Positions 1 through 12,330 of a stretch of 12,391 nt of DNA are shown here, in pieces; the stretch's first letter is position 1, and each line of letters starts with the position of its first letter. This DNA is from Ruminococcaceae bacterium UBA1438. GTDB taxonomy: Bacteria > Bacillota > Clostridia > Oscillospirales > Acutalibacteraceae. The stretch covers positions 23,663 through 36,053 of the forward strand of contig DCTO01000058.1 in the NCBI GenBank assembly GCA_002329285.1, written 5' to 3'. The translations under genes were made by a program, and so were the position numbers. Under the pieces are notes generated by a model, which was not told the DNA's origin, did not search any database, and was given only the letters and a program-made list of their open reading frames with translations.

Positions 1-708
1 GGCCAGGTTGTTAACGAACGCCAATTACAGCGAATTGAAAAAACCGAGCAGCTTCTTCGCATGAGCGGTATGCACACAACCTATCAAAACTATAATTTTT
101 TCAAAACCGCTTTTGCAATCATTTTCTCAATCTCCGCTGTAGGTCTCACACTTATATTAAGATTAGAATTAATCTACACTGTTCTTGTTATTGTCTTGGG
201 TGTGTTCTTTGCATTCTTCCTTCCGGATTTCTTCCTGAAGAGCAAGGTTACCTCTCACCAAAACGCCATCAAGCAGCAGCTTCCGGACGTGCTTGACCTT
301 TTAAGCGTTTGCACAGAGGCCGGCCTTAGCTTTGACGGAGCGCTTCTTAAGGTTATTGAGAAGATGGACGGAGCTCTTATTGATGAGCTTATGACGGTTT
401 TCCGCCAGATGCAGATGGGCGTTTCAAGAAACAAGGCTTTGGAAAGGCTTTCGGAATGCACTGATATTCCGGAGCTTAAAACCTTCGTTTCCGCAGTTAT
501 TCAATCCACACAGCTTGGTATTCCGATTAACAACGTTTTAAAGGTTCAGGCACAGCAGATCAGAGACAGCCGCCGCGAAGGCGCGAGAGAAAAAGGCAAT
601 AAAGCAGCATCTGCAATGGCAATTCCAACGATGGTTTTCATCTTCCCTGCCCTGTTTATCGTAATTATGGGACCGACTGTTATGAACCTTCTTAAATTAA
701 TGAAATAA
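1..708 (+). CDS. tadC: TadC-like pilus platform protein (type II secretion F domain), 5' truncated
   Basis: The reading frame is open from the first base of the window, so the start lies upstream and 235 residues are visible; the ATG at 61 is an internal Met. TadC-type proteins are polytopic inner-membrane platform proteins that pair with TadB and the TadA/CpaF ATPase to assemble Flp pili. Two adjacent hydrophobic segments lie at visible residues about 36-78. They are followed by a cytoplasmic helical T2SSF domain with the family features LPDVLDLLSVCTEAGLS, the later LGIPI turn, and an Arg-rich stretch (IRDSRREGAREKGNKAA). A final membrane helix (MAIPTMVFIFPALFIVIMG) ends the protein. This order (two helices, F domain, terminal helix) fits the C-terminal two-thirds to three-quarters of a TadC of about 300 residues. 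TadB is the closest alternative, but the short terminal tail and position next to the TadG-like gene favour TadC. The next gene starts 14 bases downstream, consistent with an operon. Confidence 0.9.
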   Translation, partial: GQVVNERQLQRIEKTEQLLRMSGMHTTYQNYNFFKTAFAIIFSISAVGLTLILRLELIYTVLVIVLGVFFAFFLPDFFLKSKVTSHQNAIKQQLPDVLDLLSVCTEAGLSFDGALLKVIEKMDGALIDELMTVFRQMQMGVSRNKALERLSECTDIPELKTFVSAVIQSTQLGIPINNVLKVQAQQIRDSRREGAREKGNKAASAMAIPTMVFIFPALFIVIMGPTVMNLLKLMK

Positions 709-722
709 ACCAACATATTATA

Positions 723-1079
723 ATGAAAAAGAAATATCTTATTATTTCTCACAATGGTGAGATTATCTGCGGTGAATGCGAAAACGCAAACACTGTTATC
801 ACTCGCTTTTTCGGCCTTATGCATCGAAAAAGCATGCCTGACGGGCACGGGCTTTTGCTTGAACCATGCAATCAAATTCACACCTTTAATATGCACTTTG
901 ACATTGATGTTATCACAATGGACAAAAGCAACAAGGTTTTGGCTGTGTTTGACAGCGTTCCGCCCCGCAAATGCAAAAGGGCTGTTAAGGGCGGCAGAAA
1001 GGTGCTTGAGCTGAATTCAGGCGAAGCCGGAAAATTCAACATTAAATGCGGCGATATTTTGGAAATTGCCGAGCAATAA
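723..1079 (+). CDS. DUF192 family small protein
   Basis: This encodes 118 residues matching the DUF192 (COG1430) pattern. An R28-F-F-G-L-M-x-R35 motif is followed by a Gly-rich turn (H42-G-L-L-L), then F55-x-M57 and I61-D-V63 leading to D67, which corresponds to the family's F-W-M-K-N-T / D-x-x-F-x-D core. The C-terminal half (AVKGGRKVLELNSGEA) fits the family's last strands. The biochemical function of DUF192 is not established. Many members are exported, but this one starts MKKKYLIISHNGEI with no signal peptide or membrane helix, so it is probably cytoplasmic. It lies 14 bases after tadC and 34 bases before the DivIVA-like gene in one direction, so it is probably co-transcribed with the pilus genes. 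No clear Shine-Dalgarno sequence precedes the ATG (the upstream bases are A/T-rich), so translation may depend on coupling to tadC. Family assignment is fairly sure; a role in the Tad system is only contextual. Confidence 0.82.
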   Translation: MKKKYLIISHNGEIICGECENANTVITRFFGLMHRKSMPDGHGLLLEPCNQIHTFNMHFDIDVITMDKSNKVLAVFDSVPPRKCKRAVKGGRKVLELNSGEAGKFNIKCGDILEIAEQ

Positions 1080-1113: not shown

Positions 1114-1803
1114 ATGGCTGCTTTTGATTTAAATAAGAATATTGACGAAGAGGAAAACACCTTTGATTTTTCAAAGGTTGCAAGAGGATATAAGCCCAAG
1201 GAGGTTAACAACTTCATCTTTGAGCTTAAAAGATCCAACGCTAACATAATTAAGAATTATGAAAGCAAAATTGCAGATTATCAGAATGAAAACGAAATGC
1301 TGCAATGCGAAATCAATGAATTAAAGGCAACACTTGCAAGCCGTGACCGCAATGAAAAGGCGGCAATCGAATCAGCTGATAAAGCAAGAGAAAAGCTTAA
1401 GGCAGTTCAGAGAGAAATCTCCGAAATTGAAACAATAAAAGCAGAAGCTGCAAGCAACAAGGCATTGGCTGAAAAGCTGCAAAAGGAAAACGAAAAGCTG
1501 CAAAAGAATTATGTTATTGCAGATGCCGATAAGAAGCTGCTTAAGGAAAAGCTGGAGGCAGTAAAAAAGGAATACAGCGAAGCTAAAAACGCCTATAAAG
1601 AGGAGATTGAGCAGATAAAAAATGATTATGCTCAAAAAGCTCAGGAAGGCGCTGATGTTGCTGCACAATCCGCTGCTGCGGCTGCTGCAAATGATGATGA
1701 GCTTCAAAGAGTTATCGGGGCTTACACAATTCATTTGAAGAAGACCCGCCAGCTTGTTGACTCCCTGCAGGAGCAGCTTGATAAGGCAGAGGATATATTG
1801 TAA
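1114..1803 (+). CDS. DivIVA-like coiled-coil protein
   Basis: This encodes a soluble, highly charged protein of 229 residues. Near the N-terminus, residues 17-35 (FDFSKVARGYKPKEVNNFI) match the DivIVA-domain signature: a hydrophobic/phenylalanine pair, then R-G-Y followed by E-V-x-x-F. In DivIVA and GpsB this tip binds negatively curved membrane and is followed by a parallel coiled coil. Here residues about 36-185 are rich in Glu, Lys, Ala and Leu in heptad-like spacing. An Ala-rich linker follows (about 187-203), then a short amphipathic C-terminal helix (residues 205-229). There is no membrane segment. DivIVA proteins act as cytoplasmic scaffolds at poles, septa or other curved membrane. 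This one sits 34 bases after the DUF192 gene in a Tad pilus operon, so a role in placing the pilus machine is a reasonable inference. A general Wag31/SepF-like division role cannot be excluded. The start is fixed by the AGGAGG just upstream, and a terminator-like hairpin follows the stop. Confidence 0.8.
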   Translation: MAAFDLNKNIDEEENTFDFSKVARGYKPKEVNNFIFELKRSNANIIKNYESKIADYQNENEMLQCEINELKATLASRDRNEKAAIESADKAREKLKAVQREISEIETIKAEAASNKALAEKLQKENEKLQKNYVIADADKKLLKEKLEAVKKEYSEAKNAYKEEIEQIKNDYAQKAQEGADVAAQSAAAAAANDDELQRVIGAYTIHLKKTRQLVDSLQEQLDKAEDIL

Positions 1804-1988: not shown

Positions 1989-4900
1989 ATGAATAAAAAA
2001 ATTAAGAGAGGAATAAAAAACGAGCACGGCGCGATTATGGTTGTGCTTGCAGTCGGCATTGCTGTTTTCCTGGCTTTTGCCGCTCTGGTTATTGATATCG
2101 GTTTATCATATCACCAGAAAGCAAAGCTGCAAAGCGCATCGGACGCTGTTTCTCTTGCCGTTTCCAGCATGGTTAGTGAAATTGCAGACTTTAACCCAAC
2201 CAAGAATGCGAAACAGGCTAATAACATGAAAAACTGGGTTCAGAGTTATTACGAGGAAAACGGAATCAATGCTTTCCAAAACATTTCCGGTAATCTTTCT
2301 GATACCAATATTTATGTTTACAACATCAAAAACAAGGAAAGCGTTATAAACACGCTTGATCCAAACAAGGATGCTGTTTACGTTTTTTGGAAATCTGTTA
2401 ACTCAACTGATGATGTTGTTAGTTACAGATATATTGAGGTTTATTCTCATATGAAGACCAACGCCATTTTCGGTGGAGTGCTCGATATTGATTCCTATAA
2501 CCTCACCTGCGATTCAGCCGCAAAATGTGAGGTTATCAGAGGCGGAAACCCTGATGCGCTTAACTATCAGATCCTGAATTTAGGCTCTGACGAAAGCTTT
2601 GACATCACAGGCCCGATTGAAAACACCTTTGTTAAATCCATAACCAATTTCATGGAGAATGGCCTTAATATCGGGCTTGATTTCCTGCAGAATGACACAA
2701 GACTGATTTCTAAATATATCATGGGCGGCAAGGTTAGATATAAATGCCCAAACCCCGAATGCCCATATGTTAATGAGGACGGCACCCACGGCTATATAGG
2801 CTCTGAAGATGAATTTTGGCTTGATGCATCTGCTTCACCAACTGGCCAGGCAGGATATTTCTGCCCCAAATGCAGCACAGAATGTACAGAGGATGATTCA
2901 AACAGGGTTGATGTTAATATCACAACATCTGCTGCTGTTGTTAACGGATATATCCATTCTAACCACGGCGCAAGCATTGATATTGACACCTTCCGTTTAA
3001 GAAGCTCGCTTTATTCTGCAGTTCAAACAGTTACCTGCGAAAACCCAACCTGCGGATATGTTGGCGCTCCGGAAGAGTTTGAAACAAGATATGTTGATTC
3101 TGAGCAGAATTCAGGCAGCAAAGACACCATCATTTTCACATGCCCTAAATGCGGAACTGAAACCACACTTACCGCAACAGAGCTTGCTGAAGCAAATGAC
3201 ATTGATACAGAAAAATCAAACGAGTTTTGGACTGTTTATAAAAACGGAGTTAAGGAAAGCAACCGACCCCTGCTTGAACTCAGCGGCTCATCCGATGATT
3301 TGATTATTAGCGGAAACAACAACAACGATATTTATTTCCTTGGCGATCCCCTGTTCATCTACGGGCAGGACAGCTCTGTTTCATATTATTTCAGAACAGT
3401 TTATAAATCCGCGCAGGATGCTAAACCATGGGATGCTGCCCGCGTTAACAAGCAATTTGTTTTCGGAGCTGCAGAGGTTGCAGACCCCGGATTTATTGAA
3501 TACATTCACACACGCTTTAATTATGACACAATTGCTGACACTGATAACACCGTCAATGTTGGCTCAATCACAAGGCTTACCTCCGGCTCAACCTATGCCG
3601 TTCAGTTTGGCGGCACTGCTTCCGGCGGTGAGAATTACAGTTGGGATGAAGGCAGCGGCACATTAACTATTAGCGGTGCTTCAATCCCGAATTACACAAG
3701 AGGCAACCCTGCTCCGTGGAAGAATTTATACGGAAGCAGCGTTCAGAAAATCGTTGTCGGCCCCGGCGTTACATCCATCGGTGAATATGCATTTTACGGG
3801 CTTAACAACGTTTCATCGGTAACCCTTTCCGATTCCGTTTTATCTATCGGAAGGAATGCATTCTCCGGTTGCCGCAGCCTTACAAGCATCTATATCCCCT
3901 CCTCCGTTCAGATTATTGACAGCTATGCTTTCAATAACTCCGGAGTAAGCACCTTCTATGGTGTTGAAGGCTCATATATTCAGACCTGGTGCTCATCAAA
4001 CCGCAAGGCATTCAGCTCTGATTATGCTGACACCGGCGTTTCCGGCTCTGCAGTTGCAAAATTTGATATGGCGGTTGATCCCCTTTCCCTTCTCGATGAG
4101 ATTGACCTGGGTAATGACACCGCTTTACCGAGCGTTTATTCGGTTTATGATAATTACAACCGCTTTGATTACAACTTTGACGGCGTTTTGGATTCTGTTG
4201 GCGATGTTATTAACAACACCGTGCCAATGGTTGAAAACGGAGATGCAAATGTTTTCAATTCGCTTAACCCGGTTGAAAAGGTTATTTATGACAAGGGCTT
4301 TAATATTACAGCCGGCGCAGGCGGAGATGACAGCGCTGAGGACACCGTTCGCCCGACGATTGACGCAAAGGTTACTGCAATCACAGGTGACATTCATAAC
4401 GAGGCGCTTCGCGGCGATGACGACTTTAAATCATATTACGACATTAACATCTCTAAAGCTGTTAACACAAAGAGAGCTGCAATGCAGGCCTCGCTCAGCA
4501 CCATTGAAAACAACTACATTCAAAGGGCAATCACAGGCGGCGCATATGCAAGCGGCAGCATTGCGGATAACGTTTCAACAAAATACACTTATAACCGCAA
4601 TGAAATGAAGAGAGAGCTTTTCGGCGCAAACACACAAACCGGATCACTTTATGACACGCCGATTCTTTACAGAACGGCTGACACTCTTTATACCAGCTAT
4701 GTTAACCAAACAATGACATCACTGCAGCCGACTCATTTCCAAATTGGCGATGACGATTATAATGCAGAGGACTTCATTGAAGGACGCGACGGCGTTAAGG
4801 TTGACGGCAAGGTTCTTGAGCTTGTTAATAACTACATTCAGGATGCTCCCGATCCTCCGACAAATGATTGGCAGACGCAGTACAATAATTACACCGGAAC

Positions 4901-7900
4901 ATGGACAAAATCAGTTTGCCAAACCGGAACAAATTGGGGTGCAATTACCGGAACTGACAACAAGTGGAAGAACGACCCGCAGATTTCCGGATATGCTTAT
5001 ATTTCATATATTAATACACCGAGATATAAGAAATCCTGGACAACAACCACAACGAGAAATGTTATTTTCAACGGCGGATGCAAAGCATATGTTGACGGCG
5101 ATACTTCATTCACCTCAAGTGACGGAAAAGGAATTCAGATTCAATCCGGCACAAGCGACAATTACACATATGTTTATTTCAGAGGCAATGTTTCCTTTAA
5201 CGAAAATGAAGACACCTTAACAATCGGCGATAACTGCGTTGTTATTATCGAGGGTGATGTTTATGTTTGGACAAAGGGCAAGAGCATCTCTATCGGAAGC
5301 AATTCAATTTTAGTTGTTAAAGGAAAAATTCAAAACGGCCGTGGCGGCGATTTTAATATCGGAAACAATTCAAGGGTTTATTGTGCAAATTATTACGGCG
5401 CAACAGAACATTCATCAGGTCTTTGGGTTCCTGCAAACAACAATATTAACGTTGGAACAAATTCTTATTTCTTTACAACAGGAACACTTGATTTACAGGA
5501 TGGAGGCGGAACAGTTACCGCAAATAACGGCTCTGTGATTTCAGTTGGCACTGATTTTTGGTTTAATAACGGCGGTAACGTTGTTTTAAACACAACAAGC
5601 CAGATGTTTGTCAACGGCTATATGCGAGTTCAAGGTTATAACAATAATAACGGCAATGTTACCATAAATGACGGATGTTTACTTGTTGCAGACGGCTTTA
5701 GAATTTATAAGGGAGGAACAACTACCCTTAACGGCAGCGCAAGAATGATTGCAACAGGAAACGGAAGCGGTTCATCAGACACATCTGACAGCGGTGCAGG
5801 AAGTTATTCCGGCGTTGTTGACTGCTCTGAAATTGTTTCATCAACATCGGCAACAATATCTGCTCATAACAGAGTTTTTTCAGGAGGTAATAACGGTCTT
5901 TCCGCAATAGGAAATCTTTTTGTTGTTAACAATGTTGAAGCAACAAAAAATGATATACATGTATACGGTAAGGCTGTAGTTGGCGGCACGGTAAGCGTTG
6001 GCTCTCACACAACCTATGTTGAAAACAATGCCGTTTTGGTTACGCCTTCAGTTTCCGGTGCCCTTTCAATGGGGGCAAATTCCGTTACCGTTGTTGAATC
6101 AAGCGTTAATTTGGGAAGCAGTGATTTAACCTGCGATAACTCAACCCTTTACTGCAGCGGAACGCTGACTGCAAAGGATTTATACATCAAATCAAATTCA
6201 AAGATTCATGTTGATGAAAACATCAACCTTTCCGGCGTTATTTTCGGAACGAATGACAATGCGCAAAACTGGGTTCTTTCCTGCAAGGGCGACATCACCA
6301 GCACCGCAGGCACGGGCGACAGCGTTAACAGCGTTGCAACAGGAAGCTATATTTTCTGCGAAGGAAATATGACTTTCACAAACCGCGCATTTACAAATAA
6401 CGGAACGGTTTATTGTTTCCAGAAGTTTAAATCTAAGAGCCTGGTTAATAGTTCAGGAGCTAATTTCTATGTTAATGCAAGCTCTGAAAATGCAATTGAA
6501 ATAGACGGCTCTATAAAGAATTACGGCAATATCTATGCCGGCACCGGCGGCATTTACTGCACAAGAGACAGCAGCAACACCGGCATTGACAACTTTGACG
6601 GCGCTGTTATCGTTTCAATGGGCAAAATAGACCAGAACGGAAACGGCAATAATTCAAGCATTACGAACAAGAGCGGCAGCCGAATTTATGCTGCAGGCGA
6701 AATGCACTGCTATAAATTCAAGGGTGAAACAGGGCAATACACGCTTTGCGAAGGCAACCTTAACCTTTGGACAACAAATTCTGATCATTATTCCGATTTC
6801 AGCGGGCAGACGGCAATCGGCAAGGCGCTTAACGGCAATAATAATGCCGGCATTAACGTTTACGGCAGCTTAACCGTTAACGGCCTTGATTGCAGCGGCT
6901 TCAATTTCAACAGCATAGGCGATGATTGGAATTCAAATGGCTCTGCAAGCGACCCTGCCCTTGCAAATGCAACAAAGGGTATTTTTGCACGCTATCTGCA
7001 TGTTCGCAACGGCGGCAAAATGTACGTTCGCGGCATGGTTTATGTTAAGACCGGCGAATTTGATGTTTATAACAGCGACGCTAATAACAACTATTTCTCA
7101 ATTGCAGTTATTGACGGCGGCATTGGCAAGATGAACCACGAGGTTCTGCACACCGGCTCATATATGAGCGTTGACAGAGGCGATAATAACAATGCCTACG
7201 CTCAGCTTTATGTTGACGGAAACGCCTATATCGGCAGTTCAAGCAATAATTCAATTTACCTTAAGGACGCCTGCTATATGAGAATCACAGGCACGGTTAA
7301 GGTTAACCGCGGTATTGTTGGCGGAAATGTTCAGAACAACAGTTTTATTCACTTTGGCGGCTATCAGGTTGAAGGCGGCGACACCTCTATCGGCACTGCC
7401 GGAATGGAGCAGACCGATGCAGACAACACAGTATTCTATGTTGATAACAATGTTGAATGCTGGGGCGGTAAGCTTCATAACTATGCAACAACATATATCG
7501 GCGGCAATGCTTATATTGGCTGGAGATGGTCTGACGGAATGTTTGACTTTGCAGTTGATGACAAAGCAACCGTTTATGTTGGCGGAGATGTTTTTGCTGC
7601 TTATTGGGCACAGTTTAATTTTTCAAACGCATTCATTGCCGGAAATGTTAACGTTGCATCAGGTGGCTTCAAGCAGCTTAATGAAAGCGGAGACAATGGC
7701 GAGGTAAGCGGCACTGCATACATTGTTGGCAACATCGTTTCAAACGGCGAGATTGTTAACGAGGGCATCGGCGCTATTCTTTCCGGCGGCAATATCACAT
7801 CCACAGGTGCAATCACAGGTGATTCTGATGAGGGAATTATTTATGCTGCGGGCAATATTGAATTTAACGCAGCAACATCAAGCGTTTTCTCCATCTTCTA

Positions 7901-10900
7901 TTCAGATGCAATTATCAGATCTAATTACAGCACTGAAAGCACAATAAACATTGTGTTTGCATCTAATCTTCAGTATGAAAGCCTTGTTAACTGCCGCAGC
8001 AGTATAACAGACTCCTCATCACTTTACACATATGTTTCATTAACGAGAGACTCCTCTTCCCTGCTTGACAAATTCACGGTTGTTGGCGATAACGCGATTT
8101 ATAATGAAAACAACCCGAATCTGAATAAGAGAACCGTTATTGATGTTACCGGATATAACCTTATTCTTTCCGGTAAAGAGGTTAGAAACGCCGGCATAAT
8201 CATTTGCCGCAAGGACAGCAGTGGCAGAGGCGGCAGCATCACCATCAAGAAGAAAGGCGGCACCTGGTCTTATCTTGTTAACACAGGAACAATTTATTGT
8301 GACGGCAATCTTAGGATTGAAGGAACAAACACCGGTCCGGAGGTAACAGTTCCGTTTAACGTTGGCGAAACCAACTACGGTTTATCACTCCAAAACGGTA
8401 ACAGCCAGAGCGTTAAGGGCGATATCTATGTAATGGGTGAAATCTTAACCTATGGCGCAATCGATAATTACAACAAGATTTACGCCGGTGGCGATGTTCA
8501 CACCACAACCTTGATCAAAGGTACAACAAGCACTGACAACAACGGTCTTGATAACGAAGATAATTCCGTTTTGATGGCAGGCGGAAGCATTACTGCCGAC
8601 ATCAACCCTGACAACAACAACGAATTCGATTCTGCAAGAGTTAAATCCGGCGTTGCAACCAATCAGGAAACGGATGAAACCATCATCGCAAGAAGAAATT
8701 CAGTGTTCCTCGCTCTCGGCAACGTTCGCTGCTCATATGCATTCATTGTTGGCGACCATAACTTCTATGATTCCGCTAACACTGCAACAACTCAATTCGG
8801 CAGTGAACAATTTAAGTATCTAACTCAACAAAGTTATCACGGCTTTGACAGAAGCGCGGCAGGTTATGTCAGAACAAATATGACCGATGTTTCTGCAATT
8901 CAGCTCACGGCTGATGAAAACGATGTTAACTATTACGGCAATTTCACCGATTTGCTTTATGATGAAACCGGAAACAAGATTCTTAATCTTGCAGGCGAGG
9001 TTGGAAATTACTTCACCTATTCCGCAACTGCAAACGGCAAAAACGGAAGCACTTATAATGATTTCGGCTTTGCTTATATCGGCGGAACGCTGACAGCATC
9101 TAACAGACAGGATGCTAACGGCGGCAACAACCAGAGAAACTACATCCGCAATTTCGGAAAGAGCGTTATCTATGTTGCAGGCAACACCATTAACGACGGA
9201 TATCAGAATCCACGCGGAAATGCGCTTGAAACATACTTTATGTATCTCTATCCGTATTCAAGAATGTATGTTGGCGGTAACCTTGAAACTCATGGCGGTT
9301 ATCAGAACATCTTCTCATCTAATAACGGACTTGCGTTTGACTCCTGGTTCTATGCACATCTCTATGTTAACGGCAATGCAACCTTCCCGAACGGCAAGGC
9401 AAAGGTTCGTGACTGCACAAAAACCCTTATTGCCGGCAATCTTACCCTCACCGATTACTTTGAGCTTGGTAAATCACCCGATGAGGGCGAAAGAGATGTT
9501 AAGGAAGCTTACGACCAGAACAATTTCTGCTTCATGCAGATTGGCGGAAACTTCCAGTGCGACGGCTACGTTAAGATTTTTGAACGCTCAACAATGAATG
9601 TTAACGGCAATTTCTCAAATCTTTCAGGCTGGAGCATTCCAAATCATTATCTGACAATGCGCCATCACTCTGCTCTCCGCGTTGGCGGAAACATTGAGTG
9701 CTCAAAGGCGGATATCGGCTCTAACTCAACTGTATGGGCAGGCGGAAGCTTCAAGGCCGGCGCAAGCACAATCAAGATCAGAGATAACTGCGATATCTCC
9801 GTTGGCGGCAACGGCGCGGGCGACATTGTTGCTCTTTCATACATTGAAATCGGCAAGCATGAGAATGAGGCTTACAAGTATAAGACCTGGGCTGAAAACA
9901 GACCGCAGGGCGTTTATGTCAGCCAGGATGACATCATTAATGATGAAGGCGATGCTGACGGGCCTGAAGAGGCTTCCGGTGTTGACGTTGATGTTAACAT
10001 GACCATCACCTGCCCCAACTGCGGCAGAGAAGGCACAATCAGCGGCGGCCAGTTTACATGCGATGCGAGCACGGATGACGTTCAATACACCTGCGCATCC
10101 TGCCACGAAGTGTTTGATGATTCTGCAGACGCATTTGAGGGCGACACGGCAATCGGCTCCAGAGTTTATGTTAACGGCACAATCAACACCAAAACAAGCT
10201 ATCTGAAGCTGTTTGCAAACACCCAGGCATATGCAACAAGCAGCATCCGCTCTTACAGATATATTGCTCTTCGCCATCATGCAGGTCTTTATGTAACAAC
10301 ACAGACCCCGCAGGCAACAGGCATTATGTTTAACTTTGACAGCCAGAGCAGATTGCTTGACACTAACGGAAATGTTGTTAACCACTTCTATGTTGACACT
10401 GATGAAAACTCTTCCGAATACGGTAATATCTATTACTGGCCGGCAAGCTTCCAGTATCAGGATGCGGATAACAACGCCCAGCACAAGGACAATCAGAGGC
10501 TTTACGGCTTCACGGTTATCATTGACGAAAGCGAATCCTTTGATGTTGACCGCTCAAAGGGCAGACTTGAGCAGAACATGCTTTACTTCTATGAAAATGG
10601 CGTTAAGACATATCCTTACACCGTTCTTGAGGTTGAATCTGACGGCAATATAATTGAGCAATTCAATTATGTTTACATTGATTCAAGCCTGAATGCTGTT
10701 CAGGACGAGAGCGGCGACGATCACCTTAACGGCGATGTATTCAACGGCGGCTCTGCAATTTATATTGATCTTCCGGTAACTGAAGGCTCTATCGTTTCTT
10801 ACGGCGATCTTGACGTTAACACGCTGGCAACCTGCTATGCAACGGGTGACATCAAGTCTTATGGCAAGACCTATATCGGAAACGAGGCGCTTATCTTCAC

Positions 10901-11408
10901 CAAGGGCAATTATATGTGCACAAGCCTGATTTCACTTGGCTCGCTGTTTAACGGCAGAAGCATTTGCGGCTTTGAAATGAAGCACGGCCATCTTTATGCT
11001 GACGGCGATGTTAAGATTTACAGCTGCTCGCAGATTGGCGGTGGAACAATTGATGCGGTTGGCGATGTAACGTTTGACAGTGTTTATACACATTACGAAT
11101 ATGAATATGTTGACGAAAACACCAATCCTTACACTGATCCGACTGACATTGACCTGTTTATCGCTTCGGAAGACGGAAATATTAATTTCAATTCCATTTA
11201 CAGCTACACCGGCGGCGTAACCTACGCTCCTAACGGAACAATTGCCGCAAACGGCATTGCATTCGTTCATTATGGCTGCTTCATTGCAAGCGATAACAAC
11301 ATTAATGCGTTTTACATTAATCTTCACCGTCTTGCAAACCTCAGCAGTCTTGATCTGAAATGGACCGCTCCCGGCAATGTATTCCTTTGCGAGCCAATGG
11401 ATAATTAA
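1989..11408 (+). CDS. Giant TadG-like anchored surface protein with zinc ribbons, BspA LRR and beta-solenoid
   Basis: This single frame encodes 3139 residues, far longer than ordinary TadE/TadG minor pilins (roughly 150-600). The N-terminus has a basic leader, E12-H13-G14, a hydrophobic helix (15-35) ending VIDIG, then a polar helix with LQSASDAVSLAV: the TadE/TadG-like pattern of an inner-membrane-anchored pilus protein facing outward. Residues to about 195 resemble a TadG head, with NAIFGGVLDIDSYNLTCDSA as its last strands. Then come Cys4 modules at 253-299 and 350-388, a BspA-type LRR block (552-674), a region with predicted helices and a calcium-loop-like motif (727-739), and a Pro-containing linker near 955. 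From about 1024 to the end, beta-solenoid-like coils repeat, interrupted by a third Cys4 module (2675-2705). Composition is rich in Asn, Gly, Ser, Asp and Thr. There is no LPxTG, SLH or C-terminal membrane helix, so the N-terminal helix is the only visible anchor. Domain content suggests a surface adhesin or fibre displayed with the Tad pilus; ligand and export route are unknown. The start is chosen by its GGTGAT ribosome binding site. Confidence 0.88.
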   Translation: MNKKIKRGIKNEHGAIMVVLAVGIAVFLAFAALVIDIGLSYHQKAKLQSASDAVSLAVSSMVSEIADFNPTKNAKQANNMKNWVQSYYEENGINAFQNISGNLSDTNIYVYNIKNKESVINTLDPNKDAVYVFWKSVNSTDDVVSYRYIEVYSHMKTNAIFGGVLDIDSYNLTCDSAAKCEVIRGGNPDALNYQILNLGSDESFDITGPIENTFVKSITNFMENGLNIGLDFLQNDTRLISKYIMGGKVRYKCPNPECPYVNEDGTHGYIGSEDEFWLDASASPTGQAGYFCPKCSTECTEDDSNRVDVNITTSAAVVNGYIHSNHGASIDIDTFRLRSSLYSAVQTVTCENPTCGYVGAPEEFETRYVDSEQNSGSKDTIIFTCPKCGTETTLTATELAEANDIDTEKSNEFWTVYKNGVKESNRPLLELSGSSDDLIISGNNNNDIYFLGDPLFIYGQDSSVSYYFRTVYKSAQDAKPWDAARVNKQFVFGAAEVADPGFIEYIHTRFNYDTIADTDNTVNVGSITRLTSGSTYAVQFGGTASGGENYSWDEGSGTLTISGASIPNYTRGNPAPWKNLYGSSVQKIVVGPGVTSIGEYAFYGLNNVSSVTLSDSVLSIGRNAFSGCRSLTSIYIPSSVQIIDSYAFNNSGVSTFYGVEGSYIQTWCSSNRKAFSSDYADTGVSGSAVAKFDMAVDPLSLLDEIDLGNDTALPSVYSVYDNYNRFDYNFDGVLDSVGDVINNTVPMVENGDANVFNSLNPVEKVIYDKGFNITAGAGGDDSAEDTVRPTIDAKVTAITGDIHNEALRGDDDFKSYYDINISKAVNTKRAAMQASLSTIENNYIQRAITGGAYASGSIADNVSTKYTYNRNEMKRELFGANTQTGSLYDTPILYRTADTLYTSYVNQTMTSLQPTHFQIGDDDYNAEDFIEGRDGVKVDGKVLELVNNYIQDAPDPPTNDWQTQYNNYTGTWTKSVCQTGTNWGAITGTDNKWKNDPQISGYAYISYINTPRYKKSWTTTTTRNVIFNGGCKAYVDGDTSFTSSDGKGIQIQSGTSDNYTYVYFRGNVSFNENEDTLTIGDNCVVIIEGDVYVWTKGKSISIGSNSILVVKGKIQNGRGGDFNIGNNSRVYCANYYGATEHSSGLWVPANNNINVGTNSYFFTTGTLDLQDGGGTVTANNGSVISVGTDFWFNNGGNVVLNTTSQMFVNGYMRVQGYNNNNGNVTINDGCLLVADGFRIYKGGTTTLNGSARMIATGNGSGSSDTSDSGAGSYSGVVDCSEIVSSTSATISAHNRVFSGGNNGLSAIGNLFVVNNVEATKNDIHVYGKAVVGGTVSVGSHTTYVENNAVLVTPSVSGALSMGANSVTVVESSVNLGSSDLTCDNSTLYCSGTLTAKDLYIKSNSKIHVDENINLSGVIFGTNDNAQNWVLSCKGDITSTAGTGDSVNSVATGSYIFCEGNMTFTNRAFTNNGTVYCFQKFKSKSLVNSSGANFYVNASSENAIEIDGSIKNYGNIYAGTGGIYCTRDSSNTGIDNFDGAVIVSMGKIDQNGNGNNSSITNKSGSRIYAAGEMHCYKFKGETGQYTLCEGNLNLWTTNSDHYSDFSGQTAIGKALNGNNNAGINVYGSLTVNGLDCSGFNFNSIGDDWNSNGSASDPALANATKGIFARYLHVRNGGKMYVRGMVYVKTGEFDVYNSDANNNYFSIAVIDGGIGKMNHEVLHTGSYMSVDRGDNNNAYAQLYVDGNAYIGSSSNNSIYLKDACYMRITGTVKVNRGIVGGNVQNNSFIHFGGYQVEGGDTSIGTAGMEQTDADNTVFYVDNNVECWGGKLHNYATTYIGGNAYIGWRWSDGMFDFAVDDKATVYVGGDVFAAYWAQFNFSNAFIAGNVNVASGGFKQLNESGDNGEVSGTAYIVGNIVSNGEIVNEGIGAILSGGNITSTGAITGDSDEGIIYAAGNIEFNAATSSVFSIFYSDAIIRSNYSTESTINIVFASNLQYESLVNCRSSITDSSSLYTYVSLTRDSSSLLDKFTVVGDNAIYNENNPNLNKRTVIDVTGYNLILSGKEVRNAGIIICRKDSSGRGGSITIKKKGGTWSYLVNTGTIYCDGNLRIEGTNTGPEVTVPFNVGETNYGLSLQNGNSQSVKGDIYVMGEILTYGAIDNYNKIYAGGDVHTTTLIKGTTSTDNNGLDNEDNSVLMAGGSITADINPDNNNEFDSARVKSGVATNQETDETIIARRNSVFLALGNVRCSYAFIVGDHNFYDSANTATTQFGSEQFKYLTQQSYHGFDRSAAGYVRTNMTDVSAIQLTADENDVNYYGNFTDLLYDETGNKILNLAGEVGNYFTYSATANGKNGSTYNDFGFAYIGGTLTASNRQDANGGNNQRNYIRNFGKSVIYVAGNTINDGYQNPRGNALETYFMYLYPYSRMYVGGNLETHGGYQNIFSSNNGLAFDSWFYAHLYVNGNATFPNGKAKVRDCTKTLIAGNLTLTDYFELGKSPDEGERDVKEAYDQNNFCFMQIGGNFQCDGYVKIFERSTMNVNGNFSNLSGWSIPNHYLTMRHHSALRVGGNIECSKADIGSNSTVWAGGSFKAGASTIKIRDNCDISVGGNGAGDIVALSYIEIGKHENEAYKYKTWAENRPQGVYVSQDDIINDEGDADGPEEASGVDVDVNMTITCPNCGREGTISGGQFTCDASTDDVQYTCASCHEVFDDSADAFEGDTAIGSRVYVNGTINTKTSYLKLFANTQAYATSSIRSYRYIALRHHAGLYVTTQTPQATGIMFNFDSQSRLLDTNGNVVNHFYVDTDENSSEYGNIYYWPASFQYQDADNNAQHKDNQRLYGFTVIIDESESFDVDRSKGRLEQNMLYFYENGVKTYPYTVLEVESDGNIIEQFNYVYIDSSLNAVQDESGDDHLNGDVFNGGSAIYIDLPVTEGSIVSYGDLDVNTLATCYATGDIKSYGKTYIGNEALIFTKGNYMCTSLISLGSLFNGRSICGFEMKHGHLYADGDVKIYSCSQIGGGTIDAVGDVTFDSVYTHYEYEYVDENTNPYTDPTDIDLFIASEDGNINFNSIYSYTGGVTYAPNGTIAANGIAFVHYGCFIASDNNINAFYINLHRLANLSSLDLKWTAPGNVFLCEPMDN
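2028..2162 (+). other. TadE/TadG-type membrane anchor (residues 14-58 of the giant protein)
   Basis: G14-A-I-M-V-V-L begins a 20-residue hydrophobic helix that ends VIDIG, followed by LSYHQKAKLQSASDAVSLAV. The VIDIG ending and the Q-x-A-x-D-A pattern after the helix are typical of the Flp pilus-assembly TadE/G-like family. The basic stretch before it (KKIKRGIK) predicts N-in, C-out topology. No Glu is present at position five of the mature helix, so cleavage by a prepilin peptidase after G14 is uncertain; the protein may keep its helix as TadG-type proteins do. Confidence 0.82.
2745..2885 (+). other. Zinc-ribbon-like Cys4 module 1 (residues 253-299)
   Basis: C253-P-N-P-E-C258 is followed 34 residues later by C292-P-K-C295, with an extra C299. 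Two Cys knuckles separated by a short beta-rich stretch are the usual zinc-ribbon layout. Together with the second module it forms a related pair, both built as C-x-N-P-x-C ... CPKC. Metal binding is inferred, not shown. Confidence 0.65.
3036..3152 (+). other. Zinc-ribbon-like Cys4 module 2 (residues 350-388)
   Basis: C350-E-N-P-T-C355-G-Y-V is followed by F-T-C385-P-K-C388-G-T-E. The first knuckle, the E-E-F or D-E-F stretch after it and the CPKC knuckle all align with module 1, which suggests an internal duplication. The region between the modules (300-349) contains a short beta-like segment ending RLRSSLYSAVQ. Confidence 0.65.
3642..4010 (+). other. BspA-type leucine-rich repeat block (residues 552-674)
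   Basis: The block opens with W552-D-E-G-S-G-T-L-T-I-S-G and A-P-W-K, the conserved lead-in of BspA-like LRR_5 domains. Repeats of about 23 residues follow, with cores GVTSIGEYAFYGLNNVSSV, then SVLSIGRNAFSGCRSLTSI, then SVQIIDSYAFNNSGVSTF. It ends with YGVEGSYIQTWCSSN, the usual LRR_5 terminal 'G-x-x-x-x-x-A/W-C' cap. Members of this family bind host or bacterial surface ligands in several bacteria, and here the block is short (about three repeats). It is very recognisable by pattern. Confidence 0.88.
4167..4205 (+). other. Calcium-loop-like motif (residues 727-739)
   Basis: D727-Y-N-F-D-G-V-L-D735 reproduces the D-x-N-x-D-G-x-hydrophobic-D start of EF-hand and dockerin calcium loops. The twelfth position is Gly and an Asp follows at 739, so the last ligand is shifted. 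Only one loop is seen, so it is not a full dockerin; calcium binding is a guess. Confidence 0.35.
5058..9855 (+). repeat. Beta-solenoid-like degenerate repeats, first tract (residues about 1024-2623)
   Basis: Coils recur with the core hydrophobic-Y/x-V/A/I-x-G-N/D/T-hydrophobic, for example VYVGGDVFAA (Y1863), KIYAGGDVHT (Y2165) and MYVGGNLETH (Y2427). By eye there are at least forty such cores in the whole protein. The spacing is variable, commonly 20-35 residues, with Asn/Ser-rich loops between, so the DNA repeats are degenerate and not tandem copies. The pattern predicts a right-handed parallel beta-helix, as in haemagglutinin-type adhesins; bactofilin-like helices give a similar G-N/D-hydrophobic pattern. 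Low Pro and few charged Lys fit an extracellular fibre. Confidence 0.7.
10011..10103 (+). other. Zinc-ribbon-like Cys4 module 3 (residues 2675-2705)
   Basis: C2675-P-N-C2678-G is followed by C2702-A-S-C2705-H, a compact Cx2C-x23-Cx2C ribbon. An acidic linker just before it (EGDADGPEEASGVDVDVN) separates it from the preceding solenoid. Unlike modules 1 and 2, its first knuckle has two residues between the Cys, so it may be a separate acquisition. It interrupts the beta-solenoid tract. Confidence 0.65.
10155..11340 (+). repeat. Beta-solenoid-like degenerate repeats, second tract (residues about 2723-3117)
   Basis: The same cores return after the third Cys4 module (RVYVNGTINT, LYADGDVKIY, TIDAVGDVTF). 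Residues about 2775-2905 (between the cores RVYVNGTINT and TCYATGDIKS) are less regular and could be a separate domain. The last coils contain TYAPNGTIAANG (Y3079), then HYGCFIASDNNI. This 'APNG then outward coil' ending resembles the C-terminal caps of pilus-associated proteins of the PilX/DUF7305 kind, which is an inference from pattern only. The protein stops 22 residues after the tract, without an anchor. Confidence 0.6.
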
Positions 11409-11502: not shown

Positions 11503-12330
11503 ATGAGATATTTTTTCAGCAATCTTTCCGTTACAATAAAAGAGCTTTTTCAATCCTTTCTTGAATTGGATTTAAAGAAAAAAATCATATCTGCTCTCTG
11601 TGTGATATTAGCCATCGCGGGAATTATCACCGGTGTGGTTTTGACAAAGCAATCAAAAAAAACCAATAAGGATCCCGATAAAACCGCTTATTCATATGTT
11701 GAAAGCTTCGCAAATCATGATTATTTAAATGCTTATGAATATTCAATTATCGGCAAAAACGGTGTTTATAAATATCTTGAAAAGAATTATTTTGACGGTT
11801 ACAAGCACAAGGACACGCTTTCTGAGCAGGAAGAGATTGATGCCCGAAACATTGCAAACACGCTGAATGCATCCCTTAATTCTTTTATGAACACATATGG
11901 CATAAAGGATTATGATAATTTCTTTGGTGCTTATTTTGACAGCGCTTCAGAGCTTGTTAATAACTTCTTGGATGATACGGAGCTTACAGACGCCCTGATG
12001 ATAAAATCTCTTGAGCTTGGGCTTGCGGCAAATAAGGAGCAATATATTGCAAGCTTAAATGAGCAATACAACAATAATTATGAAATCAGCATTTCTGAGC
12101 CAACAATCAAAGAATTCTCTGATGAGGATACAGCAACATATATTGCAAACAAGAGTGAAGCGGCCGTTGAGATTTTTGAAAAATCCGGACTAAAGCCGGA
12201 AAAAATCAAGAAATTAAGGCGATATGATTACAGCATTTATATAAATGATCTGGAAACAAACGTTTTGAGCGTTTATCTTGTTAAGATCGGCGGAAATTGG
12301 TATGTTGATTTAACAACGCTTGTTTATTAA
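11503..12330 (+). CDS. Single-pass membrane protein, NTF2-like/lumazine-like C-terminus, unknown function
   Basis: This encodes 275 residues that I do not recognise as a named protein. A cytoplasmic N-terminus with LDLKKK precedes a hydrophobic helix at about residues 28-48 (IISALCVILAIAGIITGVVLT), then Lys-rich residues and an extracellular domain of about 220 residues. That domain starts with a helix (TAYSYVESFANHDYLNAYEYS) of the 'V-x-x-F-x-x-x-D-Y-x-x-A-Y' kind seen in NTF2-like DUF4878-type proteins. It ends with VYLVKIGGNWYVDLTTLVY, the final-strand pattern (hydrophobic-K-x-x-G-x-W-Y-V-D) of that fold. A middle part rich in acidic residues and Asn connects the two. The start ATG has only a weak GAAAGG (11484-11489), 13 bases upstream. 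The gene follows the giant gene in the same direction but behind a hairpin and a possible promoter, so it may form its own unit. Lipid or cell-wall anchoring is not seen. A chaperone or assembly role for the giant protein is conceivable but unsupported. Confidence 0.8.
   Translation: MRYFFSNLSVTIKELFQSFLELDLKKKIISALCVILAIAGIITGVVLTKQSKKTNKDPDKTAYSYVESFANHDYLNAYEYSIIGKNGVYKYLEKNYFDGYKHKDTLSEQEEIDARNIANTLNASLNSFMNTYGIKDYDNFFGAYFDSASELVNNFLDDTELTDALMIKSLELGLAANKEQYIASLNEQYNNNYEISISEPTIKEFSDEDTATYIANKSEAAVEIFEKSGLKPEKIKKLRRYDYSIYINDLETNVLSVYLVKIGGNWYVDLTTLVY

What the first reader, a model, noticed from the sequence alone, without database searches (positions are those of the whole stretch)
1989..11408. 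Giant TadG-anchored mosaic adhesin (3139 residues) beside Tad pilus genes
Seen: one uninterrupted frame with a TadE/TadG-type membrane start, two related Cys4 modules, a BspA LRR block, roughly 2000 residues of beta-solenoid-like repeats, and a third Cys4 module. Known: TadE and TadG are usually small minor pilins or pilus-associated proteins with, at most, a von Willebrand domain. Inference: this lineage has turned the TadG position into a giant surface fibre or adhesin that could be carried with, or displayed by, the Tad machinery. The combination of TadG anchor, LRR, zinc ribbons and solenoid in one protein is not one I recognise as a described architecture.
Basis: partly seen in the sequence, partly recalled or inferred. 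Interest (0 to 1): 0.8.

Follow-up and report, generated by a model that had tools for sequence, protein, structure and literature searches.

The report
Giant TadG-type tip pilin
A gut bacterium and its close relatives carry, in the slot of their Tad pilus operon where two related genera encode a roughly 600-residue minor pilin (TadG), a version stretched to 2,300 to 3,700 residues by a long repetitive beta-sheet rod with a highly variable middle, which looks like an oversized pilus-tip adhesin.

Summary
In detail: 1989-11408 is one 3139-codon frame with a TadE/G-type N-terminus (PF13400), three Cys4 modules (two clearly related), a BspA-type LRR block and a beta-solenoid, modelled here for the last 760 residues. 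The gene ends a Tad operon (Flp pilins, TadV, TadE, CpaB, TadZ, TadA, TadB, TadC, DUF192, DivIVA-like coil, giant). PF13400 was found in 31 of 80 genomes of the genus: 20 proteins are complete (2318-3671 aa), 10 run off the contig, and one, in a rearranged locus, has an in-frame stop. All 31 have DUF192 and/or the coil gene directly upstream, 28 also TadC. A sister genus has a 2622-aa version. Two other genera of the family have 588- and 649-aa TadG in the same slot, with a DUF7305-like solenoid whose C-terminal end is homologous to the giant's. So this is a hugely expanded TadG, not an unrelated adhesin with a TadG anchor. Both ends are conserved, but the middle (about 900-1600) is hypervariable. 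The +5 glutamate is missing, as in tip-capping pilins. Best reading: a tip minor pilin presenting a long solenoid adhesin (inferred, untested). New variant of a known kind. LRR and zinc ribbons are optional modules.

The parts
1..708 (+). TadC, C-terminal part (T2SSF). The N-terminal part lies in another frame upstream (p96b), with an ambiguous base (X residue) between; taken as a contig flaw, not a real split
   Evidence: PF00482 E 2.1e-17; in relatives p96b lies just before TadC
723..1079 (+). DUF192 protein, regular member of these Tad operons
   Evidence: PF02643 E 6.8e-19; found upstream of the giant in 29 of 30 other genus loci
1114..1803 (+). DivIVA/GpsB-like coiled-coil protein (ORF listed from TTG 1066)
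   Evidence: NCBIfam GpsB 23.1 bits and DivI1A_domain 15.6 bits, both below cut-off; found upstream of the giant in 29 of 30 other genus loci
1989..11408 (+). giant TadG-family protein, 3139 aa
1989..2534 (+). pilin-like head, residues 1-182: long helix 4-62, second helix 74-90, beta-strands 108-112, 129-137, 145-158, 169-182; PF13400 at 14-58; no Glu at +5 after the Gly
2745..2873 (+). Cys4 (zinc-ribbon-like) module A, residues 253-295
   Evidence: C253, C258, C292, C295 are invariant over the 14 rows of alignment A2, window included
3036..3152 (+). Cys4 module B, residues 350-388, related to A; no such CxxC pair in P0005-P0007
3594..4028 (+). BspA-type leucine-rich repeat block, residues about 536-680
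4689..6788 (+). hypervariable segment, residues 901-1600
   Evidence: mean identity 0.15-0.25 per 100 residues to 11 homologues (gaps counted as mismatches), against 0.42-0.63 in residues 2701-3139
9126..11405 (+). C-terminal beta-solenoid, residues 2380-3139, modelled
10011..10103 (+). Cys4 module C inside the modelled region, residues 2675-2705; a similar module lies near residues 1134-1173 of P0003 and in L085
11142..11321 (+). conserved C-terminal end, residues 3052-3111, homologous to the C-terminus of ordinary 588-649 aa TadG (DUF7305-like)
   Evidence: hhalign E 1.7e-6, reversed control 0.6
11503..12330 (+). 275-aa protein with an N-terminal membrane segment (by eye); relatives directly downstream of the giant in L027 (53%) and L114 (34%)
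   Evidence: no family match over cut-off

Best explanation
This is the TadG-type minor pilin of a Gram-positive Tad (type IVc) pilus, enlarged about five-fold. Its N-terminal pilin-like helix and small beta-sheet would pack with TadE, and as a subunit without Glu5 it would cap the growing Flp filament. Assembly by TadA/B/C would then push the rest of the chain outward: zinc ribbons, an LRR block and then a beta-solenoid rod. If all of residues 900-3139 is solenoid, at 21-25 residues per turn and 0.48 nm rise, the rod is roughly 43-51 nm long (my estimate). The conserved base and end of the rod and the hypervariable segment between them suggest a presented adhesin whose binding surface diversifies while its mount and its end do not. 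Shown: family, operon linkage, homology of both ends to a short TadG of the same slot, missing Glu5, predicted solenoid fold of the C-terminal quarter. Inferred: location at the pilus tip, export, adhesion, ligand.
For: PF13400 head over cut-off. Gene order TadE-CpaB-TadZ-TadA-TadB-TadC-DUF192-coil-giant: of the 30 other genus loci, 27 have TadC, 29 DUF192, 29 the coil and 24 CpaB upstream of the giant in the stretch fetched; the three without TadC (L086, L089, L120) are cut by a contig end. PF13400 and CpaB co-occur: 29 genomes both, 2 PF13400 only, 1 CpaB only, 48 neither, Fisher p 2.6e-18 (related genomes are not independent; in 4 of the 29 CpaB is on another contig). Two Flp pilins with the G|xxxxE motif lie upstream. 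The same slot holds ordinary TadG of 588 and 649 aa in two other genera, with homologous N- and C-termini. The window's N-terminus matches 23 of 23 genus giants first fetched, and its C-terminal half 19 of 19 complete ones. No Glu at +5 in 30 of 30 giants read (its L027 row is void, the N-terminus being missing) nor in the two ordinary TadG; TadE and Flp have it. Type 4 filaments are capped by a minor pilin lacking Glu5 (PMC10191384, passage), and TadG-type KilN is the tip backbone of a Tad pilus (PMC12075869, passages). Ends conserved, middle variable.
Against: No data on location, expression or binding. The N-terminal model is poor overall (pLDDT 57, pTM 0.29) and its pilin-like part drew no listed pilin match (where the LRR filled the list). 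Two reviews place TadG among cytoplasmic-membrane components rather than minor pilins (PMC10191384 table, PMC6916266; passages). I found no precedent for a rod of this size capping a thin Flp filament. KilN, CpaL and their kin are described with a prepilin cleavage site; processing of the giant is unknown. A hypervariable segment also fits escape from phage or immune pressure without adhesion, and the closest pair compared (P0037/P0038) shows no marked dip there.
Confidence: 0.6

Rival explanations
1. A membrane-held rod: TadG stays in the cytoplasmic membrane by its helix, and the solenoid spans the thick cell wall as a scaffold or conduit for the pilus, or as an adhesin independent of the filament.
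For: TadG is listed as a membrane component in two reviews. An estimated 43-51 nm rod is about the thickness of a Gram-positive wall (my estimate and general knowledge). No Glu5, so it may not enter the filament.
Against: The pilin-like head and lack of Glu5 also fit a tip cap; KilN (TadG homologue) and CpaL (minor-pilin-like with a vWA domain) are modelled at Tad pilus tips. A scaffold would not be expected to have a hypervariable middle.
Confidence: 0.22
2. A cargo: the Tad machine exports the giant protein, which is released or retained on the surface as a free adhesin, as type II secretion systems do with their effectors.
For: Fold resembles the secreted adhesin EtpA. No LPxTG-type motif or other C-terminal anchor seen by eye in the translation.
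Against: It keeps a conserved Tad helix and takes the TadG slot; PF13400 was found only once in this genome, which is 85.8% complete.
Confidence: 0.08
3. An ordinary BspA-type LRR adhesin that merely sits beside tad genes.
For: 28 of the 33 non-self hits of the first search have no annotated Tad domain and are LRR proteins.
Against: Those 28 match over 4-10% of the query. Of the 18 non-self C-terminal homologues, 15 carry a Pfam Tad domain, 2 more a Tad-type start by eye, and 1 lacks the N-terminus. Upstream neighbours are the same across the genus.
Confidence: 0.03
4. An artefact: misassembly or a chance open frame.
For: The genome is a draft of 122 contigs, 85.8% complete, with ambiguous bases near tadV and in tadC.
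Against: Independent genomes and metagenome proteins show the same protein with conserved ends.
Confidence: 0.01

Closest known systems
Ordinary TadG of the same slot (here L115, 588 aa; L116, 649 aa)
   Same: Same operon slot, PF13400 head, no Glu5, G/N-rich solenoid-like body with a DUF7305-like C-terminal end
   Different: 3.6 to 6.2 times shorter than the complete genus giants; no LRR_5 match in the Pfam scan and no Cys4 module seen in the translations
KilN / TadG tip proteins of Tad pili (Myxococcus Kil system, PMC12075869; passages seen)
   Same: TadG-type pilin head with a customised distal domain at a Tad pilus tip
   Different: KilN4's extra domain is described as helices plus a large beta-scaffold; no solenoid is mentioned in the passages seen
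CpaL of Caulobacter (PMC12607857; passages seen)
   Same: Minor-pilin-like module fused to a large extracellular domain, placed at the tip by modelling
   Different: vWA domain reaching residue 626; no solenoid or LRR in the passages seen
Modular pilins PilB/PilC of Streptococcus sanguinis (PMC10191384, PMC6916266, PMC12075869 passages; PMC8179133 in a listing only)
   Same: Adhesive domains grafted onto a pilin, in a Gram-positive
   Different: Type IVa pili; vWA and lectin domains
EtpA and other beta-helix adhesins (antigen 43, tapirin)
   Different: Different export routes (two-partner, autotransporter; recalled) and no pilin head; no sequence relation shown

Membership tests
TadG / TadE-G-like (PF13400) | PF13400 match at the N-terminus over the curated cut-off | tested here: met
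   29.7 bits, cut-off 22.3, residues 14-58
TadG / TadE-G-like (PF13400) | Encoded in a tad locus with Flp, TadA, TadB/C, TadE, CpaB, TadZ | tested here: met
TadG / TadE-G-like (PF13400) | Pilin-like fold of the head | tested here: inconclusive
   Helix 4-62 plus beta-sheet, block pLDDT 56-84 for residues 11-180 and 37 for 1-10; no pilin among the listed matches, which the LRR filled
TadG / TadE-G-like (PF13400) | Part of the pilus tip complex | not testable with these tools
   needs localisation
Subunits that cap type 4 filaments | No Glu at +5 after the prepilin-type Gly | tested here: met
   Val in the window; no Glu in 30 of 30 giants read; Flp and TadE have Glu
Subunits that cap type 4 filaments | Cleavage by the prepilin peptidase | not testable with these tools
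   the Gly is present but processing is unknown
DUF7305 (PF23981) | Pfam match over cut-off | tested here: not met
   no match listed at E <= 1 for the window; short relatives 24.0 and 25.7 bits against 27
DUF7305 (PF23981) | Homology of the C-terminal end to DUF7305-like TadG | tested here: met
   hhalign E 1.7e-6 and 6.8e-8; reversed control 0.6
BspA-type LRR proteins | LRR_5 domain | tested here: met
Two-partner secreted beta-helix adhesins (EtpA kind) | Long beta-helix | tested here: met
Two-partner secreted beta-helix adhesins (EtpA kind) | N-terminal secretion domain at Pfam level | tested here: not met
   no such family among the 9 Pfam matches at E <= 1
Modular (grafted-domain) adhesive pilins | Demonstrated adhesion by the grafted part | not testable with these tools
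   no experiment

The most novel reading that the evidence does not exclude
The lineage builds a Tad pilus whose tip is a single beta-solenoid spear of about 250-460 kDa (at 110 Da per residue) and tens of nanometres, by far the largest pilin-type subunit known to me. It grew by expansion of the short DUF7305-like solenoid of ordinary TadG, and its middle is exchanged or diversified between relatives while base and end stay fixed: a tip whose receptor-binding section can be swapped.
Probability: 0.4. Interest if true: 0.75.

Novelty: new variant of a known kind. Interest (0 to 1): 0.6.

Why it matters
TadG's role in Gram-positive Tad pili is unsettled, and tip customisation was described for far smaller domains in the passages I saw. 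A series from 588-649 aa in related genera to 2318-3671 aa in this genus (up to 4161 aa among metagenome relatives), with homologous ends, makes the question testable: is TadG a tip, and how large a load can a thin Flp filament carry through a thick wall? The conserved ends and hypervariable middle point to where binding specificity would lie. Three clusters of relatives stand for 864, 2526 and 4224 member sequences, so the protein is not rare in public sequence sets.

Tried and rejected
Independent LRR adhesin: rejected, since the 28 hits without an annotated Tad domain match over 4-10% of the query and the C-terminal search returns Tad-type proteins; in both searches only the roughly 8000 candidates sharing most words were scored. 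Bactofilin or FapA membership: only sub-threshold matches in relatives (Bactofilin 14.1 and 16.7 bits against 27.9; FapA 15.8 against 31); not claimed. Phage or terminase reading of the third Cys4 module (GpA_ATPase E 0.016): below cut-off, taken as zinc-ribbon resemblance. Sequence search of residues 901-2379 against solved structures: no match at E <= 1. Horizontal transfer of the operon from the sister genus: not needed, since the 556-aa rpoB piece of G530 is 81-90% identical to the seven genus members compared and 68% to G592; the window's own rpoB was not found.

Giants elsewhere in the phylum: one search lists matches only down to E 9e-10 (longest open frame 668 aa); the window's own weaker match is not among the rows, so giants there are not excluded. 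In the order sample (394 genomes, 22 with a match, all 24 rows listed) the longest other frame is 1492 aa; in the family sample (300 genomes, 27 with a match) there is one other giant, G530. A class sample of 391 genomes searched with the C-terminus gave the window and one weak match over query residues 609-705 in a 771-aa frame. Slot: not every short TadG sits after DUF192; in L117 (G521) the TadG-like ORF lies between TadE and CpaB, and in L110 (G240) no tad gene matched in the stretch fetched.

Literature: searches (lists capped at 15, 15 and 12 of thousands) showed no title or abstract start about a giant TadG; DUF7305 is in no paper held. Passages of PMC3244431 say nothing of large TadG proteins for the terms asked. 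Subscription papers and preprints were not covered.

Full report
What is there. Window 1989-11408 is one frame of 3139 codons. The window is G000:C52:23663-36053 of a 1.75-Mb draft genome in 122 contigs, 85.8% complete. The one locus found by the DNA scan of named genomes is an uncultured Eubacterium sp. from red deer (L027); one homologue is named by its source as a TadG-related protein of a Eubacterium sp. MAG (P0048).

Neighbours. Upstream on the contig lie a TadV-type peptidase, two Flp pilins (L002 13167-13328 and 13356-13520, motif G|QGMIEY, read), TadE, CpaB, TadZ, TadA, TadB and TadC, then DUF192, a DivIVA-like coiled coil and the giant. The tadC gene looks split, with an ambiguous base at the junction; I take this as a contig flaw.

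Survey. PF13400 is found in 31 of 80 genomes of the genus and CpaB in 30 of 80: 29 both, 2 PF13400 only (G010, G097), 1 CpaB only (G038, on a 3.6-kb contig, L125), 48 neither; Fisher p 2.6e-18, without correction for relatedness. I fetched all 30 other PF13400 loci. Twenty proteins including the window's end in a stop at 2318-3671 aa (starts taken as the first ATG/GTG/TTG), and ten run off their contig. One, L118 (G097), has a TAG after 774 codons, beyond which the same frame continues; its tadA lacks the first 274 codons although the contig runs on with an unrelated ORF, and no CpaB was found in that genome, so this locus is rearranged or decayed, or the contig is chimeric. Of the 30 other loci, 29 show DUF192, 29 the coil, 27 TadC and 24 CpaB upstream of the giant in the stretch fetched; all 30 show DUF192 or the coil. 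L086, L089 and L120 lack TadC because their contigs end first.

Protein searches. With the C-terminus: 18 relatives besides the window (2412-4161 aa), 15 with a Pfam Tad domain, 2 more with a Tad-type helix by eye (P0039, P0047), and 1 lacking the N-terminus (P0036). With residues 1-1200: 33 besides the window, of which 5 have Tad; the other 28 are LRR proteins matching over 4-10% of the query. Both searches scored only the roughly 8000 candidates sharing most words.

Outside the genus. In 300 genomes of the family, one other giant appears, G530 in another genus (2622 aa); its rpoB piece is 81-90% identical to the seven genus members compared and 68% to G592, so it is a close sister. G592 and G545, other genera of the family, have TadG of 588 and 649 aa (or 583, if it starts later) in the same slot after TadC-DUF192-coil. 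They carry PF13400 and a sub-threshold DUF7305 (24.0 and 25.7 bits against 27) and read as a Tad helix followed by a G/N-rich solenoid-like body. Their N-termini match the giants', and their C-terminal ends match the giants' C-terminal ends by profile comparison (E 1.7e-6 and 6.8e-8; reversed control 0.6). In G521 of the same family, by contrast, the TadG-like ORF lies between TadE and CpaB (L117). In the order sample (394 genomes) the longest other frame is 1492 aa. The phylum sample (398 genomes, 187 with PF13400) lists frames up to 668 aa, but the list is cut at E 9e-10 and cannot exclude giants. A C-terminal search over 391 genomes of the class found the window and one weak partial match.

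Variation. Over 11 relatives the mean identity per 100 residues, gaps counted as mismatches, is 0.41-0.46 in residues 1-400, 0.15-0.25 in 901-1600 and 0.42-0.63 in 2701-3139. Of four pairs compared, three dip in the middle: P0003/P0004 fall to 25-35% in 1301-1700 (43-53% in 901-1100 and 1201-1300, 61-95% elsewhere), P0005/P0006 to 18-19% in 901-1100, P0039/P0040 mildly to 37-59% in 701-1100. The closest pair, P0037/P0038 (73-96%), shows no marked dip. LRR and Cys4 modules come and go: LRR_5 is absent from 5 of 5 other genus giants scanned (L086, L090, L096, L101, L103) but present in L114, and a module like C lies at another place in P0003 and L085.

Mechanism. TadG-type KilN forms the backbone of a Tad pilus tip, and TadG of several other bacteria is predicted to do the same with a C-terminal modular domain (PMC12075869, passages). 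Filaments are capped by a subunit lacking Glu5 (PMC10191384, passage). Here TadE and both Flp pilins have Glu5, while none of the 30 giants read, nor either ordinary TadG, has it (the L027 row of that table is void because its N-terminus is missing). The simplest reading is a tip-capping minor pilin with an overgrown solenoid; a rod of some 43-51 nm is my estimate from 21-25 residues per turn. Tip location, export and adhesion are inferred. The main rival keeps the protein in the membrane as a wall-spanning rod, since two reviews list TadG among membrane components (passages).

Novelty. The kind (modular TadG/minor-pilin tips) is known. The size, the solenoid-with-LRR-and-zinc-ribbon architecture and the short-to-giant series were not seen in the listings. 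I rate it a new variant of a known kind.

Noticed in passing
window 1114-1803; relatives upstream of the giant in 29 of 30 other genus loci and in L114-L116: A DivIVA/GpsB-like coiled-coil gene (GYxPxEV-type motif by eye) sits directly before TadG in these Tad operons, also before the ordinary short TadG of L115 and L116; it could place the pilus machine at poles or septa.
   Followed up: partly
window 723-1079; L111, L112, L115, L116: A DUF192 gene follows TadC in these Tad operons, also in two loci of other families of the order (L111, L112); function unknown.
   Followed up: partly
L118 (G097:C187): The giant gene has one in-frame TAG after 774 codons with the same frame continuing, and the tadA beside it lacks its first 274 codons; decay, rearrangement or contig error not distinguished.
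   Followed up: partly
L104-L109, L113: Other loci in the order have 877-1491-aa proteins with weak PF13400 matches near a TadA-like ATPase about 50% identical to the window's; a separate medium-sized TadG-like type.
   Followed up: no
window versus L081, L083, L085, L114: The genus appears to have two Tad operon types: the window's, with G009, G032, G045 and sister G530 (TadA 73-90% identical among them), and another (66-71% to the window in the four compared).
   Followed up: partly
L117 (G521), TadG-like ORF 6555-7706: In this family member a 383-aa TadG-like ORF lies between TadE and CpaB instead of after DUF192, so the slot has moved at least once.
   Followed up: no
P0044, P0047, P0038: Clusters of giant TadG relatives stand for 2526, 4224 and 864 member sequences in public sequence sets.
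   Followed up: no
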